In this document: piece by piece, positions 43,319 through 63,843 of the stretch
Layout of the letters: each line of letters opens with the position of its first letter
Numbering within the stretch: the first letter of the stretch is position 1
Assembly (NCBI RefSeq): GCF_000176155.1
Contig: NZ_ACZO01000006.1
Span: forward strand, 248,001-312,000
Length of the DNA stretch: 64,000 bases
Source of the DNA: Vibrio metschnikovii CIP 69.14
GTDB lineage: Bacteria; Pseudomonadota; Gammaproteobacteria; Enterobacterales; Vibrionaceae
Reading direction: 5' to 3'
Notes under the pieces: model-generated
Database searches by the model: none
Told to the model about the DNA's origin: nothing
The model's input: only the letters and a program-made list of their open reading frames with translations
Translations under genes and position numbers: made by a program

Positions 43319-43345
43319 CAATAAGCATCGAGCGTACGCTTATTG
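43319..43345. other. Strong hairpin in the moaA leader
   Basis: CAATAAGC / GCTTATTG is a perfect 8-bp stem with an 11-base loop, and flanking GCAA/TTGC can extend it. It lies directly upstream of the Moco motif and is not part of the conserved riboswitch as I know it. Confidence 0.5.
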
Positions 43346-43349
43346 TTGC

Positions 43350-43482
43350 CATAACTCCGAGCTTATCTGCACTAAGTTTTCTTAAGCGCAACGTTTTTGA
43401 AGATAAGTCATTTAAGCCAGTGGCATTGATCCACAAGGGCAAAGTGGGAAACCTTTTTGCCTCCCGTATTTGGAAAGGTGTT
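43350..43482 (+). promoter_or_regulatory. Moco (molybdenum cofactor) riboswitch
   Basis: The leader carries the conserved Moco RNA landmarks in order: ACTCCGAGC (43354-43362), the stem CTTATCT/AGATAAG (43362-43368 / 43401-43407), AAGCCAGTGGCATT, CCACAAGGGCAAAG, TGGGAAACC, GCCTCCCG and TTGGAAAGG. The last of these is also the moaA ribosome site, so the aptamer can control translation. The E. coli moaA leader has the same arrangement. Confidence 0.85.
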
Positions 43483-43484
43483 CC

Positions 43485-44474
43485 GTGGCGCAACCATTCG
43501 AAGATAAATATCAGCGTAAATTTTACTATTTACGTCTGTCTGTGACTGATGTCTGCAATTTTAAGTGTACCTACTGTTTACCAGGGGGGTACCGACCCTC
43601 GGGAACCAAAAATTCTGCTTTTCTAACTCTGCCTGAAATTCAACGCGTGGTGAAGGCGTTTGCGTGTTGTGGAACTTCTAAAGTGAGAATTACTGGCGGT
43701 GAACCGAGTTTACGCAAAGATTTCACCGACATTATTCAGACGGTCGCTGGGCAGCCTGGGATAGAGAAAGTTGCCACCACCACCAATGGTTACCGGATGG
43801 CTGATCATGTCATGGCTTGGAAGCAGGCGGGATTGACCGATATTAATGTGAGTGTCGATAGTTTAGACCCGAGGATGTTTCAGCAGATCACCGGTGAAAA
43901 CCGTTTTTATCAAGTCATGCAGGGAATCGAGCGAGCTTTTGAGGCTGGCTTTGCGCAAGTTAAAGTTAATGTCGTATTGATGAAGGATCTTAATGCGCAC
44001 ACCATGCCTCAATTTTTGGCGTGGATTAAACATCGACCGATCCAACTGCGTTTTATTGAACTGATGCAGACAGGGGAGATGGATGATTTATTTGCTCGCC
44101 ATCACCTTTCTGGTGTCGCCCTGCGCAATCAACTGATAGCCGATGGCTGGTTACTAAAAGCACGATCACACCATGATGGGCCGGCTCAAGTTTATTGGCA
44201 TCCTGATTATCAAGGCGAAGTAGGGTTAATCATGCCTTACGAGAAAGACTTTTGCCACAGTTGTAATCGGTTACGCATCTCTGCGTTAGGTAAGCTACAT
44301 CTTTGTCTGTTTGGTGAGCAAGGTCTCTCATTACGTGATCTATTACAAGAAGATAGCCAGCAATCAGCATTAATTGAACGTATTCAAACCCAGTTACAAC
44401 ATAAGTCTGTTAGTCATTTTTTACATGACGGTAATACAGGTATAACTCCCCATTTGGCATCCATTGGTGGCTAG
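43485..44474 (+). CDS. moaA: GTP 3',8-cyclase MoaA
   Basis: Radical-SAM enzyme for the first step of molybdopterin synthesis, GTP to 3',8-cyclo-GTP; 329 residues, the E. coli length. SAM cluster CNFKCTYC (about 22-29), [13 protein letters not shown], the second C-terminal Fe-S Cys set ([21 protein letters not shown]) and the essential C-terminal Gly-Gly (SIGG). GTG 43485 is the start: GGAAAGG lies six bases upstream and [18 protein letters not shown] matches the family. The in-frame TTG 43470 is part of the riboswitch ribosome site. Confidence 0.96.
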
Positions 44475-59027: not shown

Positions 59028-60326
59028 TTAGAAAGCGTAGCTGGCTTGCACACCGACTAACCATACGTGTCCGGTCACTTCTCCAGCAAACGCGCCGCCA
59101 ATCGCTGCGGCTTGGTCGTCGGATCCATCGCGAGGCTCATACAACGAAGCTTTTTTAGCAAAAATATAGGTAAAGCCAGCATCAAGAGTCAGTTGTTTCG
59201 TGGCTCGATAGCCCGCACCAATACTTAACCAAGTACGATCGGTTTCTGGAATGGTCGCTGTGCGATATTTTGTACTTACTGCGGATAAGTCATAGGCAAT
59301 GCCTGCACGTAGGGTCAAATCTTGATCCCAAGCGTAGCTAGTCCCTAACGCAAAACGGTAGTTATCTTTCCAGTTTTCTAATTTAATCAAGTCATTAGGA
59401 GTGCCATCATGAAAGTTAGCCACCAATTGATCAAAGCTACTCCAATCTGTCCAATTAATACTACTGTGCAATGCCCATTGTTCGGTTAATTGGTGAAAGC
59501 TAGCTAGCTCTGCCGTCGCTGGTAAAGTCACAGCGAGTTGCCCCGGTTTGTGTTTTCCGTATGGGATCCCTTCAGCATGACCATCAAAGTCCATCACGAC
59601 TTGTGATTTATAGGTAAAAGCCACTCGATGATTTGGGTTGATTTGCCAAGCGGTACCAGCCTGCCAGCCCCAACTGGTATCGTCCCCTTCCATATATTTT
59701 AAAATAGTTCCTTGAGGTGCCTTTATTGGGTTTGTTCCATCCATTCCAACGATATTTTTTTCCGGCACACTGGCCCCAAAGTGACCTTCACCGATCACAT
59801 AGCGTACACCAGCCCCGACACTGACTGCGTCGGTCAGTTGATAGCCGAGGTTAACGTTCGCTTCGGCGGTGATGATTTTCGCCTGATCGCCAAAATGGCT
59901 GGCAGCAAAGTTAGGTAGCTCGGTTTCCATGCCATAATTGGTGCCGAAAGCTAAACCTAAAAAGGTCCGGTCATTCAATTGATGAGAGAAATAGGCATTT
60001 GGAACGATAGCGTCATGGGCGAAATCTTTTGCCGTCGCGCTAGTTTGCCCAAGATTCGGGTGGGTTACTGTGCCGTTGATATCAATGTTGGGATTGACGT
60101 AAATCGCCCCAGCAGAAAATTGCGTGCCAGTCAGGTAGGTTAACATCGCAGGGTTACGCCATTGTGAGCCAGCATTGTCAGCCATGGCTGCTTCACCCGC
60201 GTACGCTCGACCAAGGCCCGTCGCTGAGTATTCTGCTAGTTGAAATCCCGCTGCTTGAGCGTAGGTTGGTAGTCCCATTAAGCCGAACGCAACGGCTATC
60301 GATAACGTTTTTTGATTATTGTTCAT
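59028..60326 (-). CDS. fadL: FadL-family outer-membrane fatty acid transporter (paralog A)
   Basis: Outer-membrane beta-barrel that passes long-chain fatty acids; 432 residues. Signal peptide (about 1-25, LPTYAQA-AGF), then the FadL start AGFQLAEYSATGLGRAYAGE with the N-terminal plug and its RNPAM motif (about 57-61). Barrel strands with aromatic girdles follow, ending in the C-terminal Phe (VGVQASYAF) needed for barrel assembly. It lies 300 bases downstream of a second fadL in the same direction but behind that gene's own terminator. Substrate range cannot be read. Confidence 0.92.
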   Translation of the reverse strand: MNNNQKTLSIAVAFGLMGLPTYAQAAGFQLAEYSATGLGRAYAGEAAMADNAGSQWRNPAMLTYLTGTQFSAGAIYVNPNIDINGTVTHPNLGQTSATAKDFAHDAIVPNAYFSHQLNDRTFLGLAFGTNYGMETELPNFAASHFGDQAKIITAEANVNLGYQLTDAVSVGAGVRYVIGEGHFGASVPEKNIVGMDGTNPIKAPQGTILKYMEGDDTSWGWQAGTAWQINPNHRVAFTYKSQVVMDFDGHAEGIPYGKHKPGQLAVTLPATAELASFHQLTEQWALHSSINWTDWSSFDQLVANFHDGTPNDLIKLENWKDNYRFALGTSYAWDQDLTLRAGIAYDLSAVSTKYRTATIPETDRTWLSIGAGYRATKQLTLDAGFTYIFAKKASLYEPRDGSDDQAAAIGGAFAGEVTGHVWLVGVQASYAF

Positions 60327-60626: not shown

Positions 60627-61913
60627 TTAGAAACTACGGCTATATTGTAAGCCCATTAGTATTGCATCAGCTTTAGTTGTTGCGGTTAAAGATGAGCCAG
60701 CGTCATCTTCAACTACGCTAACATTTTTACCCATCAGATAAGTAAAACCAAAATCGAAATTAGATTTGTCATCAATTTGGTATGTAAAACCAGCAGATAG
60801 CCATTGGCGGTCTGAATCTGGTACTGATATGGAAGTTTTAGAATCTTGCGCACTGGTGTCATACATATAACCAGCACGAAGAGTCCAGTCATTATTCAGA
60901 TAGTATGTACCACCAAGAGAGTAGTGCCAGCCATCTTGCCATTGATATTGTTTATCATAGCTTCCATTTGTTGTGGCACCAACGGCAGAGCGAGAAGCAT
61001 CAAGGTTTCTAAACTTAATTTTATCGAAGCTACTCCAGCCTATCCATTGAACACTATAATGCACTGCAAATGATGTATCTTGAATTTTATGGAAACCAGA
61101 GAACTCTGCTATATCAGGAAGTGGTAGGGTAATCTCCTGACCGTGCTTATCTTTAGCTTTAAATTCAGGGCTGTAACGATAGGATAAACCGAAACGATTA
61201 TTTTCATCGAGTTCATAGACAGTACCTAGGTTAAAGCCTACTGCCCATCCATCAGCTTTATCAACATCAAGCAATGAAGTACCTTTAGCTGGGATCACTG
61301 TTGATGGAGGAATTATAATAGTATTAGCAGGGAATCCATCACCCGTCTTACGCTTCATTGTACCTTGGCCGTAAATTAAATCTAAACCTGCGCCAATACT
61401 CCACGATTTATCAATACGATACGAACCAGCTAAACCTAGATTAAAGCTCTTAACATCAGTCAAGCCGCCGTATTCTGAAGCTGGGTAATCATTTGCAAAT
61501 TCCGTTTTTGTGCCAAAATTTGAATAAGCATTTACACCCCAAGCAAATTGATCATTTACTGGAACGATAAGATGAATATTTGGTGCAACAGACGTACTAC
61601 CTATATCATCTGCATCTTTCACTGGCACTGAGTTCCCTAAAACTCCAGTATAGTTAACGTCTTTAACTTTAATATTCGTGGTAATTGTCTCAAAACCGAG
61701 TGAGAGCTCCATTTTATCAAAGAGAGCCATCGCGGCAGGGTTACGTGACATTACGGCGGCATTATCGGCAATCACGGCATCACCGGCAAACGCACGGCCA
61801 AGGCCTGTTGCTGATTGAGCGTTAAGCTGAAAGCCGGCTGCCATAGCTTGTTGAGTAGCGAGAGAGATGGTCACAGCAAGCAGTGACTTTTTAAACAGAC
61901 GCGTCTTGTTCAT
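60627..61913 (-). CDS. fadL: FadL-family outer-membrane fatty acid transporter (paralog B)
   Basis: Outer-membrane barrel of 428 residues with signal peptide (about 1-25, ATQQAMA-AGF), start AGFQLNAQSATGLGRAFAGD, RNPAAM (about 57-62), and C-terminal Phe (LMGLQYSRSF). It is clearly related to paralog A but distinct along its length. It looks more AT-rich than its neighbours, so separate origin or weaker codon selection is possible. It is divergent from fadI across 620 bases, the same fadL/fadIJ pairing as in E. coli. A partial FadR-like site lies about 100 bases upstream. Confidence 0.93.
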   Translation of the reverse strand: MNKTRLFKKSLLAVTISLATQQAMAAGFQLNAQSATGLGRAFAGDAVIADNAAVMSRNPAAMALFDKMELSLGFETITTNIKVKDVNYTGVLGNSVPVKDADDIGSTSVAPNIHLIVPVNDQFAWGVNAYSNFGTKTEFANDYPASEYGGLTDVKSFNLGLAGSYRIDKSWSIGAGLDLIYGQGTMKRKTGDGFPANTIIIPPSTVIPAKGTSLLDVDKADGWAVGFNLGTVYELDENNRFGLSYRYSPEFKAKDKHGQEITLPLPDIAEFSGFHKIQDTSFAVHYSVQWIGWSSFDKIKFRNLDASRSAVGATTNGSYDKQYQWQDGWHYSLGGTYYLNNDWTLRAGYMYDTSAQDSKTSISVPDSDRQWLSAGFTYQIDDKSNFDFGFTYLMGKNVSVVEDDAGSSLTATTKADAILMGLQYSRSF

Positions 61914-62007
61914 GGTGCTTTTTCCTTGTTATATCGCCTCTAATGGGCGTTGTGTTGAGCAAAAGCTCAGTGGCTGGCTGATACTAGTCGCAAGTATAGG
62001 AGATAGA

Positions 62008-62020
62008 AATCCGACCATTG
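62008..62020. promoter_or_regulatory. Partial FadR-like site upstream of fadL paralog B
   Basis: On the minus strand, CAATGGTCGGATT keeps the left half of the FadR core (TGGTCGGA) but not the right half. Suggestive only. Confidence 0.4.
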
Positions 62021-62129
62021 TCTAAGACGCGATTAAATCTTTAAAATTGCTAGCAATTTGGCATTAAATTGTGAATAAAAAGTTAAAAGTAGAGTTTTGG
62101 CTCTATTAAAAGGGTGCTTATTTGGCTGT

Positions 62130-62428
62130 TGCTGCCTTGTGTTGCACAAGGTGATAACTCGAAAAAACTGATCTAGAACAATTTTTAGCCGGTATTACTG
62201 GGCTAAACCGGCATAAACTTGATCTAATGCAAACTATGCTTTGTTTAAGTCGCTATATTACCTCTTGTCATCTCGTTAGCTCTAGTAGCTAACATGTTGA
62301 GCAAGATGACACTTCCTTTTGAAGGCTGACTTTACTTTCTCCTAATCAGGAAACTGATTATTTCAATTGGCTTAGGTTAATTGCTTTGTATAACATTCCA
62401 ACCACACAGCTTTGTGTGGTTTTTTTTT
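62130..62428 (+). ncRNA. Candidate small RNA between fadL and fadI
   Basis: This stretch has no convincing gene but a chain of perfect hairpins. In order: CCTTGTG-TTG-CACAAGG (62135-62151), GCCGGT/ACCGGC (62188-62193 / 62207-62212) competing with TTTAGCC/GGCTAAA, and an outer stem TGTCATCT/AGATGACA (62266-62273 / 62304-62311) enclosing GTTAGCT/AGCTAAC (62275-62281 / 62287-62293). Then come AATCAG-GAAA-CTGATT (62344-62359) and a strong one-way terminator (62401-62428). No plus-strand gene precedes it, since fadL is on the other strand. An sRNA is the simplest reading; an attenuating leader of fadI is the alternative. I match it to no known family. Confidence 0.5.
62401..62428 (+). terminator. 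Orphan plus-strand intrinsic terminator before fadI
   Basis: ACCACACA / TGTGTGGT with a GCTT loop and nine T residues. The minus strand has no T tract, so it acts only on plus-strand transcripts. Confidence 0.93.
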
Positions 62429-62470: not shown

Positions 62471-62498
62471 TTGATTGATGTAACAATTTGATTACAAT
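62471..62498 (+). promoter_or_regulatory. Probable fadI promoter
   Basis: TTGATT (62471-62476) and TACAAT (62493-62498) are 16 bases apart. The expected start of transcription falls at or beside the FadR-like palindrome that follows. Confidence 0.55.
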
Positions 62499-62503
62499 GC
62501 TTC

Positions 62504-62518
62504 TCAGGTCAGACCTCT
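62504..62518. promoter_or_regulatory. FadR-like operator of fadIJ
   Basis: TCAGGTCAGACCTCT contains the perfect palindrome AGGTC-A-GACCT, matching the GGTCNGACC core of FadR sites. It lies between the predicted -10 and the fadI ribosome site, well placed for repression. Confidence 0.7.
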
Positions 62519-62535: not shown

Positions 62536-63843
62536 ATGGGCAAGCAGGAAGTCAGAACACGCTCAGGAGAGCGTGTCGCTATTGTTGCAGGTATTCGTAC
62601 CCCTTTTGCACGTCAAAGTACGGAGTTTGCGCAAGTACCCGCGATAGATTTAGGCAAGATGGTGGTCAATGAACTGCTCACTCGAACCGACATTGATCCA
62701 CAACTCATCGAACAGTTGGTTTTTGGCCAAGTCGTGCAAATGCCAGAAGCGCCCAATATTGCTCGGGAAATTGTACTCGGTACGGGGATGAATATTCATA
62801 CGGACGCTTACAGTGTGACTCGTGCCTGTGCAACCAGTTTTCAATCCGCGGTTAACGTCGCTGAAAGTATCATGGCTGGCACCATTGATATTGGCATCGC
62901 TGGTGGCGCGGATTCCTCTTCCGTTTTACCGATTGGCGTTTCTAAAAAACTGGCAGCGAGCTTATTAGCGCTCAGTAAAACGAAAACACTCAGCCAAAAA
63001 TTCAACGTATTAAAGTCATTATCAGTTAAAGACTTAATGCCAGTTCCACCTGCCGTTGCCGAATATTCTACAGGGTTATCGATGGGACAGACTGCCGAAC
63101 AAATGGCGAAGTCGCACGGTATCTCACGCGCTGATCAAGATGCTTTAGCGCATCGTTCTCACACCTTAGCTGCCCAAGCATGGAATGAAGGCAAGATAGC
63201 CGGTGAGGTGATGACCGCTTTCCCTGAGCCGTATAAGAAGTGGCTCGATAAAGACAATAATGTGCGTTTTGATTCTACTTTAGAGGGGTACGCTAAGCTG
63301 CGTCCTGCGTTTGATCGCCAATATGGTAGTGTGACTGCGGCTAACAGTACGCCGCTCACTGATGGTGCGGCAGCCATTCTTTTGATGCGCGAAGGGCGAG
63401 CTAAAGAGTTGGGTTTGGAGATTCTTGGCTACATTCGTTCTTATGCTTTTTCGGCGATAGGCGTTGAAAAAGATATGTTGATGGGGCCTTCTTTCGCGAC
63501 GCCATTAGCGCTAGAGCGAGCTGGGATCGAACTGAAAGATTTAACATTAATCGATATGCACGAAGCGTTTGCGGCGCAGACCTTAGCCAATGTGAAAATG
63601 TTCGCTAGCGATAGCTTTGCTCAGCAATACTTGGGCCGCAGTAAAGCGATTGGTGAAATTGATATGGATAAATTCAATGTGCTTGGTGGTTCGATTGCTT
63701 ATGGTCACCCTTTTGCGGCGACGGGAGCGCGAATGATCACGCAAACCTTGCGTGAATTACAACGTCGTGGTGGTGGGCTAGCATTGAATACTGCTTGTGC
63801 CGCTGGTGGCTTAGGTGCGGCAATGATTTTGGAGGTTGAATAA
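62536..63843 (+). CDS. fadI: 3-ketoacyl-CoA thiolase FadI
   Basis: Last step of beta-oxidation, splitting 3-ketoacyl-CoA to acetyl-CoA; 435 residues, alpha... beta partner of FadJ. Thiolase motifs: nucleophile Cys in [12 protein letters not shown] (about residue 97), [23 protein letters not shown], catalytic His in [11 protein letters not shown] (about 393) and second Cys in [13 protein letters not shown] (about 422). AAGGAG precedes the ATG. Its stop overlaps the fadJ start (TAATG), so the pair is translationally coupled. Confidence 0.97.

What the first reader, a model, noticed from the sequence alone, without database searches (positions are those of the whole stretch)
62130..62428. Hairpin-rich, terminator-ended candidate sRNA in the fadL/fadI divergent gap
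The sequence shows at least five perfect short stems in 300 bases, one nested inside another, and a strong plus-only terminator with no upstream plus-strand gene. It sits exactly between fatty-acid uptake and oxidation genes, just before a FadR-like site. Inference: an independent small RNA, perhaps tied to fatty acid metabolism, or a leader that attenuates fadI. Two alternative pairings around 62186-62212 (GCCGGT/ACCGGC versus TTTAGCC/GGCTAAA) would allow switching. I recall no described Vibrio RNA at this spot.
Basis: partly seen in the sequence, partly recalled or inferred. Interest (0 to 1): 0.68.

Follow-up and report, generated by a model that had tools for sequence, protein, structure and literature searches.

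The report
Oxygen-linked small RNA beside fadI
The hairpin-rich stretch beside a fat-burning gene in this Vibrio is a real small regulatory RNA shared by much of the Vibrio family and already seen in the cholera bacterium (Vcr043); its fixed promoter design suggests that the oxygen sensor FNR switches it on when oxygen runs out, much as in the E. coli RNA FnrS.

Summary
Real feature, shorter than stated, and not new as an RNA. The transcribed unit is predicted at 62267-62428 (162 nt), not 62130-62428. It is the counterpart of V. cholerae Vcr043 (~160 nt, between VC1045 and VC1046; in print it activates rpoS and has grxA, vc0036 and sdhC as validated Hfq-linked targets): same place before fadI, full-length covariance-model match in V. 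mimicus and V. metoecus. The fold covaries (69 double-change cells against 15.4 in shuffles). The 'switching' pairings at 62186-62212 lie upstream of the promoter and are broken in the nearest relative.

New here: in 82 of 82 loci (69 distinct upstream sequences), and as an exact composite pattern in 276 of 329 Vibrionaceae genomes against 0 for the reversed control, an FNR-type dyad stands at one fixed distance from the -10, centred at about -41.5: a class II FNR promoter. The near-invariant core shares ACUUCC-U(n)-GAA with the targeting region of E. coli FnrS, but no covariance-model or synteny link to FnrS was found. Best reading: an FNR-activated sRNA that works like FnrS. The searches made found no paper saying so. 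No expression data; Vcr043 levels in LB were reported steady.

The parts
62219..62232 (+). FNR-like dyad TTGATCTAATGCAA, centred at -41.5 from the predicted start
   Evidence: Fixed distance to the -10 in 82 of 82 loci, 69 distinct; exact composite in 276 of 329 genomes. This copy matches 8 of 10 consensus positions; such a match alone is common.
62254..62259 (+). -10 box TATATT (TATAGT in most relatives)
62267..62428 (+). sRNA, counterpart of V. cholerae Vcr043; 162 nt predicted
   Evidence: Start predicted from the promoter by analogy with E. coli fnrS; end from the terminator; conserved; covarying
62267..62310 (+). 5' hairpin: helix 62267-62273/62304-62310 enclosing helix 62275-62281/62287-62293; unpaired GUUGAGCA kept between them
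   Evidence: 7 pairs with changes on both sides in the two helices
62311..62342 (+). near-invariant core ACUUCCUUUUGAAGGCUGACUUUACUUUCUCC, taken as the pairing region
   Evidence: shares ACTTCCTTTT with FnrS nt 50-59
62343..62360 (+). hairpin 62343-62349/62354-62360
   Evidence: helix 3 (96.5% of cells paired)
62364..62383 (+). hairpin 62364-62371/62376-62383
   Evidence: helix 4: invariant, so no covariation test
62400..62428 (+). intrinsic terminator with nine T
62504..62517 (.). FadR-like site (motif recalled) before fadI
   Evidence: GGTCNGACC after the core in 78 of 82 loci
62536..63843 (+). fadI
   Evidence: NCBIfam TIGR02446 FadI, 873 bits
60627..61913 (-). FadL-family porin gene, divergent
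   Evidence: Pfam PF03349, 464 bits; below the NCBIfam FadL equivalog cut-off

Best explanation
62267-62428 is the counterpart of the Hfq-associated sRNA Vcr043 of V. cholerae. FNR activates it from a class II promoter (dyad centred at about -41.5, -10 TATA[GT]T) when oxygen is scarce, and it ends at its own terminator before fadI. Its 32-nt, mostly unpaired, near-invariant core then pairs with mRNAs: near the ribosome site of respiratory or aerobic genes such as sdhC (repression inferred) and in the rpoS leader (activation). In control and seed it works like E. coli FnrS, without being shown to be its homologue. Shown here: conservation, fold, synteny, fixed promoter design. Shown in print for V. 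cholerae (passages read): size, Hfq RIL-seq targets, RNase E intermediates, rpoS activation on overexpression. Inferred: FNR control, the exact start, pairing sites, direction of sdhC control.
For: Synteny with VC1045/Vcr043/VC1046: V. metoecus and V. mimicus have ECF sigma gene, this RNA, fadI in that order with full-length model matches; Vcr043 position and ~160 nt size in PMC8545128. Fold. Promoter: 82 of 82 loci, 69 distinct; 276 of 329 genomes, control 0; dyad and -10 conserved while most of the spacer is near random; promoter kept even in five Vibrio genomes whose RNA body has diverged. FNR gene in 14 of 14 genomes searched, with the E. coli recognition helix in the four proteins read. 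FnrS likeness: same promoter layout, shared decamer inside the FnrS targeting region, joint pattern search finding 26 of these RNAs and 16 FnrS among 52 hits in 394 genomes, reversed control 2. V. cholerae targets in electron transport: PMC9732341. FNR sites predicted before fadIJ in four Vibrio species: PMC1805755.
Against: No expression data. [quoted passage not shown] The window copy of the dyad has GCAA in its right half (8 of 10), and such matches are common by chance (107 in the window, 50.7 expected). CRP or another FNR-family protein could use the site. Own sdhC pairing (-19.6 kcal/mol) is not significant: 194 of 1000 shuffled seeds do as well. rpoS site beats shuffles clearly in only 8 of 14 genomes. 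No model match to FnrS. No V. cholerae record by name was in reach.
Confidence: 0.75

Rival explanations
1. The same Vcr043 counterpart, but controlled by CRP or another FNR-family regulator (carbon or nitric-oxide signal), not by oxygen through FNR.
For: FNR-family proteins share related dyads (recalled); steady levels in LB fit a non-oxygen signal.
Against: The dyad has TTGAT, not the GTGA of CRP, in 82 of 82 loci (specificity recalled); FNR is present in 14 of 14 genomes. NO-sensing relatives of FNR with the same consensus were not searched for.
Confidence: 0.15
2. A 5' leader of fadI: transcription is attenuated at 62428 and sometimes reads through into fadI; the short form is a by-product that may also act in trans.
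For: RNA and fadI are on one strand, and a fadI reading frame follows in 14 of 15 loci checked, also where the RNA body diverged. PMC5089854 (passage) says Vcr043 was among 14 V. cholerae sRNAs that might serve as 5' UTRs.
Against: Same passage: Vcr043 has Hfq-dependent stability. Strong conserved terminator; core-to-fadI distance 228-498 nt; FadR-like site after the RNA in 78 of 82 loci; promoter-like match 62471-62498 before fadI (no better than chance in number); proposed switch pairings are upstream of the promoter.
Confidence: 0.07
3. An sRNA tied to fatty acids: controlled by FadR or acting mainly on fad genes.
For: Place between fadL and fadI. The core pairs with the fadI start region at -17.9 kcal/mol or better in 38 of 42 distinct Vibrio loci; in the window fadI is second of 48 genes.
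Against: The FadR-like site lies after the terminator, not at the sRNA promoter. In the 23 other-genus loci fadI pairing is -10.9 to -19.1 in 22 and -20.4 in one although the core is conserved. fadI pairing was not tested against shuffles.
Confidence: 0.05

Closest known systems
Vcr043 of Vibrio cholerae (Papenfort 2015, not read, cited through PMC8545128, PMC9732341, PMC7398697)
   Same: Place (before fadI, divergent from the upstream gene), size, Hfq-type sRNA; full-length model match in the close relatives V. metoecus and V. mimicus.
   Different: In the window the ECF sigma and DUF3379 genes are not between fadL and the RNA. FNR control has not been reported for Vcr043 in the papers searched.
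FnrS of E. coli (Rfam RF01796, frnS)
   Same: Dyad TTGA-N6-TCAA at -42.5 against -41.5; ACUUCCUUUU followed by GAA in the targeting region; intrinsic terminator; targets in respiration (sdhA for FnrS, sdhC for Vcr043, in print).
   Different: No covariance-model match either way; other neighbours; different 5' hairpin; 122 against 162 nt; Vcr043 activates rpoS.
AniS, the FNR-controlled Hfq sRNA of Neisseria meningitidis (name recalled; reference title seen)
   Same: Hfq sRNA under FNR made in low oxygen, by its title.
   Different: Not compared in sequence here.

Membership tests
Vcr043 orthologue | Lies directly before fadI (VC1046), divergent from the upstream gene | tested here: met
   Window order; V. 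metoecus and V. mimicus order
Vcr043 orthologue | Sequence and structure match to the V. cholerae RNA itself | tested here: inconclusive
   Full-length match in V. metoecus, V. mimicus and unnamed cholerae-like G092; no V. cholerae record by name was reached
Vcr043 orthologue | Length about 160 nt | tested here: met
   162 nt predicted; ~160 nt in print
Vcr043 orthologue | Hfq-dependent stability | not testable with these tools
   In print for V. cholerae (passage)
FnrS (RF01796) | Match to the Rfam covariance model over its gathering score | tested here: not met
   No hit at the locus; 0 of 21 genomes over the cut-off, 1 of 14 control genomes over it
FnrS (RF01796) | FNR-dependent promoter | tested here: inconclusive
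   Sequence layout met; FNR dependence itself not testable
FnrS (RF01796) | Targeting region with nt 47-49 and 57-59 | tested here: inconclusive
   Decamer nt 50-59 shared (40 of 2000 shuffles); nt 47-49 not shared
FnrS (RF01796) | Same neighbours (zntB and ynaL/dbpA in E. coli) | tested here: not met
fadI leader/attenuator | Conserved mutually exclusive folds inside the transcript | tested here: not met
fadI leader/attenuator | Read-through transcript into fadI | not testable with these tools
   No transcript data

The most novel reading that the evidence does not exclude
Vibrionaceae have their own FnrS: an FNR-activated sRNA of separate or unrecognisably distant descent, with the same promoter layout and the same ACUUCC-U(n)-GAA seed, that turns down succinate dehydrogenase and other aerobic genes and couples low oxygen to rpoS; the FNR site assigned to fadIJ in Vibrio genomes since 2007 is this RNA's promoter.
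Probability: 0.55. Interest if true: 0.62.

Novelty: new member of a known kind. Interest (0 to 1): 0.5.

Why it matters
Vcr043 is an Hfq-linked sRNA without an assigned signal. A class II FNR promoter kept at one spacing across 8 genera gives it a signal (oxygen) and a theme (respiration), makes a direct test easy, suggests the true owner of a previously predicted FNR site, and offers a possible case of FnrS-like control reached by a different RNA.

Tried and rejected
Rfam at this locus, at gathering and at loose thresholds: nothing of note. Rfam frnS in 21 genomes: sub-threshold scattered hits only. The order-wide model search gave three weak hits outside Vibrionaceae (E 0.004-0.006); read in sequence they are plain terminators and were rejected. 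A small peptide in the RNA (MLSKMTLPFEG) was rejected: the U-run inside it changes length by 1 or 3 in other loci. FadR control of the sRNA: no site at its promoter. Target energies for sdhC, fadI and rpoS are suggestive only; one search missed 5 of 14 rpoS loci through a narrow residue motif and was repeated. grxA loci were fetched but their pairing was not computed; vc0036 was not located. The ECF sigma protein gave no match in this genome, a call without a positive control. The first alignment of loci was not strand-corrected and was discarded.

Rows dropped: one search used 47 of the 65 distinct RNAs (15 of genus g17 left out because the 5' part differs in length, 3 of g10 left out as near-identical). 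The match lists were capped; their per-genome rows were complete for 36 and 82, while one search left 10 genomes without a match unlisted.

Full report
WHAT IS THERE. The window lies in a Vibrionaceae genome whose relatives are Vibrio (G000:C6:248001-312000). The 299 bases are more stable than shuffles on both strands, which decides nothing about strand; 62267-62428 alone has z -3.70 (0 of 200) and 62130-62260 only -1.32 (18 of 200).

HOW FAR IT REACHES. As DNA, 62130-62430 matches 197 of 227 genomes of the genus at E 0.001 or better. The 32-nt core (62311-62342), up to 3 mismatches, is in 255 of 329 Vibrionaceae genomes and 6 of 13 genera, against 0 for the reversed pattern. The covariance model built here finds 33 of 394 genomes of the order at E 0.01 or better under strict filters; 30 are Vibrionaceae and three weak ones are plain terminators.

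THE RNA. Aligned from the predicted start, 22 distinct Vibrio sequences have an invariant core. On 47 sequences of three genera a structure of 38 pairs holds in 98.7% of cells, with 69 double-change cells against 15.4 in shuffles (0 of 500) and 1 to 6 when slid by one to three columns. The minimum-energy fold of the window copy alone does not form the outer 5' helix. The pairings at 62186-62212, proposed as a switch, lie before the promoter and are broken in the nearest relative.

IDENTITY. In V. metoecus and V. mimicus, the two named loci found, an FadL-like gene, a DUF3379 gene and an ECF sigma gene on one strand are followed by this RNA on the other strand and then fadI, and the model matches end to end (E 6e-39 and 8e-39). 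PMC8545128 (passages) places the V. cholerae sRNA Vcr043, ~160 nt, between VC1045, a sigma factor gene read the other way, and VC1046. The window RNA is therefore the Vcr043 counterpart; no V. cholerae record by name was in reach, so the last link rests on synteny. In print (passages only): overexpressed Vcr043 raises RpoS; Hfq RIL-seq and reporters give grxA, vc0036 and sdhC as three of four validated targets, with a suggested role in electron transport (direction of control not seen); RNase E processing leaves stable intermediates; it was among 14 possible 5'-UTR sRNAs and the only one with Hfq-dependent stability shown.

THE PROMOTER. Upstream of the -10 stands TTGATCT-NN-T[T/G]CAA. In 82 of 82 loci fetched for the core, 69 distinct upstream sequences from Vibrio, g10, g14 and g17, its distance to TATA[GT]T is the same; of the 69, 64 match 9 of 10 positions of TTGATNNNNATCAA and 5 match 8, the window copy among these. 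With +1 set seven bases after the hexamer, as at annotated E. coli fnrS, the centre is -41.5, the class II position (recalled); fnrS has its dyad at -42.5. By column the dyad and -10 are near fixed and most of the spacer is near random. The exact composite TTGATCTNNTKCAA-N21-TATAKT is in 276 of 329 Vibrionaceae genomes and 8 of 13 genera, 0 for the reversed control. Of 15 loci then read, the six of g12 and g16 carry a recognisable RNA with a longer U-run (ACTTCC-T5 or T7-GAA), five Vibrio have a diverged RNA body behind the same promoter, and a FadI-like frame follows in 14 of 15. FNR is present in 14 of 14 genomes searched, this one included, with the E. coli recognition helix in the four proteins read. 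FNR control is thus the best reading. By itself the window's 8-of-10 match is nothing special (107 in 64 kb, 50.7 expected).

LINK TO FnrS. FnrS is made without oxygen under FNR and ArcA and acts mainly on energy metabolism (PMC5364647, passages). Terminators aside, the longest word shared with this RNA is ACTTCCTTTT (40 of 2000 shuffles as long); in FnrS it is nt 50-59, directly after the seed mutated at 47-49 and including that at 57-59 (PMC8595263 and PMC7311995, passages). A pattern of FNR half-sites, a gap and that decamer, chosen after seeing both RNAs, hit 52 of 394 genomes of the order: 26 this RNA, 16 with the FnrS 5' sequence, 10 other; reversed control 2. The window genome was missed there because of GCAA. 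There is no model match, no shared neighbour and a different 5' end, so common descent is not shown.

TARGETS. The core pairs with the start region of sdhC at -14.9 to -22.2 kcal/mol in 14 of 14 genomes; in this species at -19.6, reached by 194 of 1000 shuffled seeds and 101 of 1000 shuffled targets, in the cholerae-like G092 at -21.9, reached by 32 of 500 and 4 of 500. The fadI start scores -21.2, second of 48 window genes, and -17.9 or better in 38 of 42 distinct Vibrio loci, mostly weaker in 23 others. Before rpoS a site within -470 to -380 is reached by 12 or fewer of 300 shuffles in 8 of 14 genomes and not in 6, the cholerae-like G092 among the six (46 of 300); its place there overlaps the reported -414 to -402. 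These agree with print but prove nothing alone.

AN OLDER PREDICTION. PMC1805755 (passages and table) predicts FNR sites before fadIJ in V. vulnificus, V. parahaemolyticus, V. cholerae and V. fischeri. In ten loci scanned here from 250 before to 650 after the core, the sRNA dyad is the only match common to the ten, so that site probably belongs to the sRNA; the supplement with positions was not read.

NOVELTY. Six papers in the library hold 'Vcr043'. Word look-ups for FNR in the six ('oxygen' not looked up in PMC7398697, PMC9438474, PMC5089854) gave no link to Vcr043, and the listings showed none by title or abstract start. PMC11980369 (passages) says FNR-controlled sRNAs are known elsewhere and that V. 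cholerae FNR targets were not further explored. Subscription papers, Papenfort 2015 among them, were not readable. Against the oxygen reading stands the report of similar Vcr043 levels in all LB growth phases.

Noticed in passing
G000:C6:1687852-1688559 and flanks (L123): The window genome's rpoS reading frame changes near its 3' end: the open frame is 303 aa and the usual C-terminal residues lie in another frame. Real mutation or assembly error is not known.
   Followed up: partly
window 61914-62218; L070-L073, L087, L090, L091: An ECF sigma plus DUF3379 gene pair stands between fadL and the sRNA in cholerae-like and some other Vibrio loci but not in the window or in L089; no match of the sigma protein in this genome (no positive control).
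   Followed up: partly
window 62294-62303: Unpaired GUUGAGCA in the 5' hairpin is kept in Vibrio, g10, g14, g17 and g12 loci although the stems around it change; role unknown.
   Followed up: no
window 1-64000: Dyads like TTGATNNNNATCAA with up to 2 mismatches are about twice as common as in shuffles (107 against 50.7); reason unknown.
   Followed up: no
L161-L165: Five Vibrio genomes keep promoter, terminator and fadI but have a diverged RNA body (TTTCC[TA]TTTAGA[CT]TGA or near it), so the promoter is more conserved than the RNA; one of the five, L162, reads TTTCCTTTTAGGCTGA.
   Followed up: partly
window 62168-62181: A second FNR-like dyad, CTGATCTAGAACAA, lies 51 bp upstream of the conserved one in this species.
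   Followed up: no
window 43343-43496: Molybdenum/tungsten cofactor riboswitch (RF01055, 84.7 bits).
   Followed up: no
window 59028-60326 and 60627-61913: Two FadL-family genes in tandem on the minus strand.
   Followed up: no
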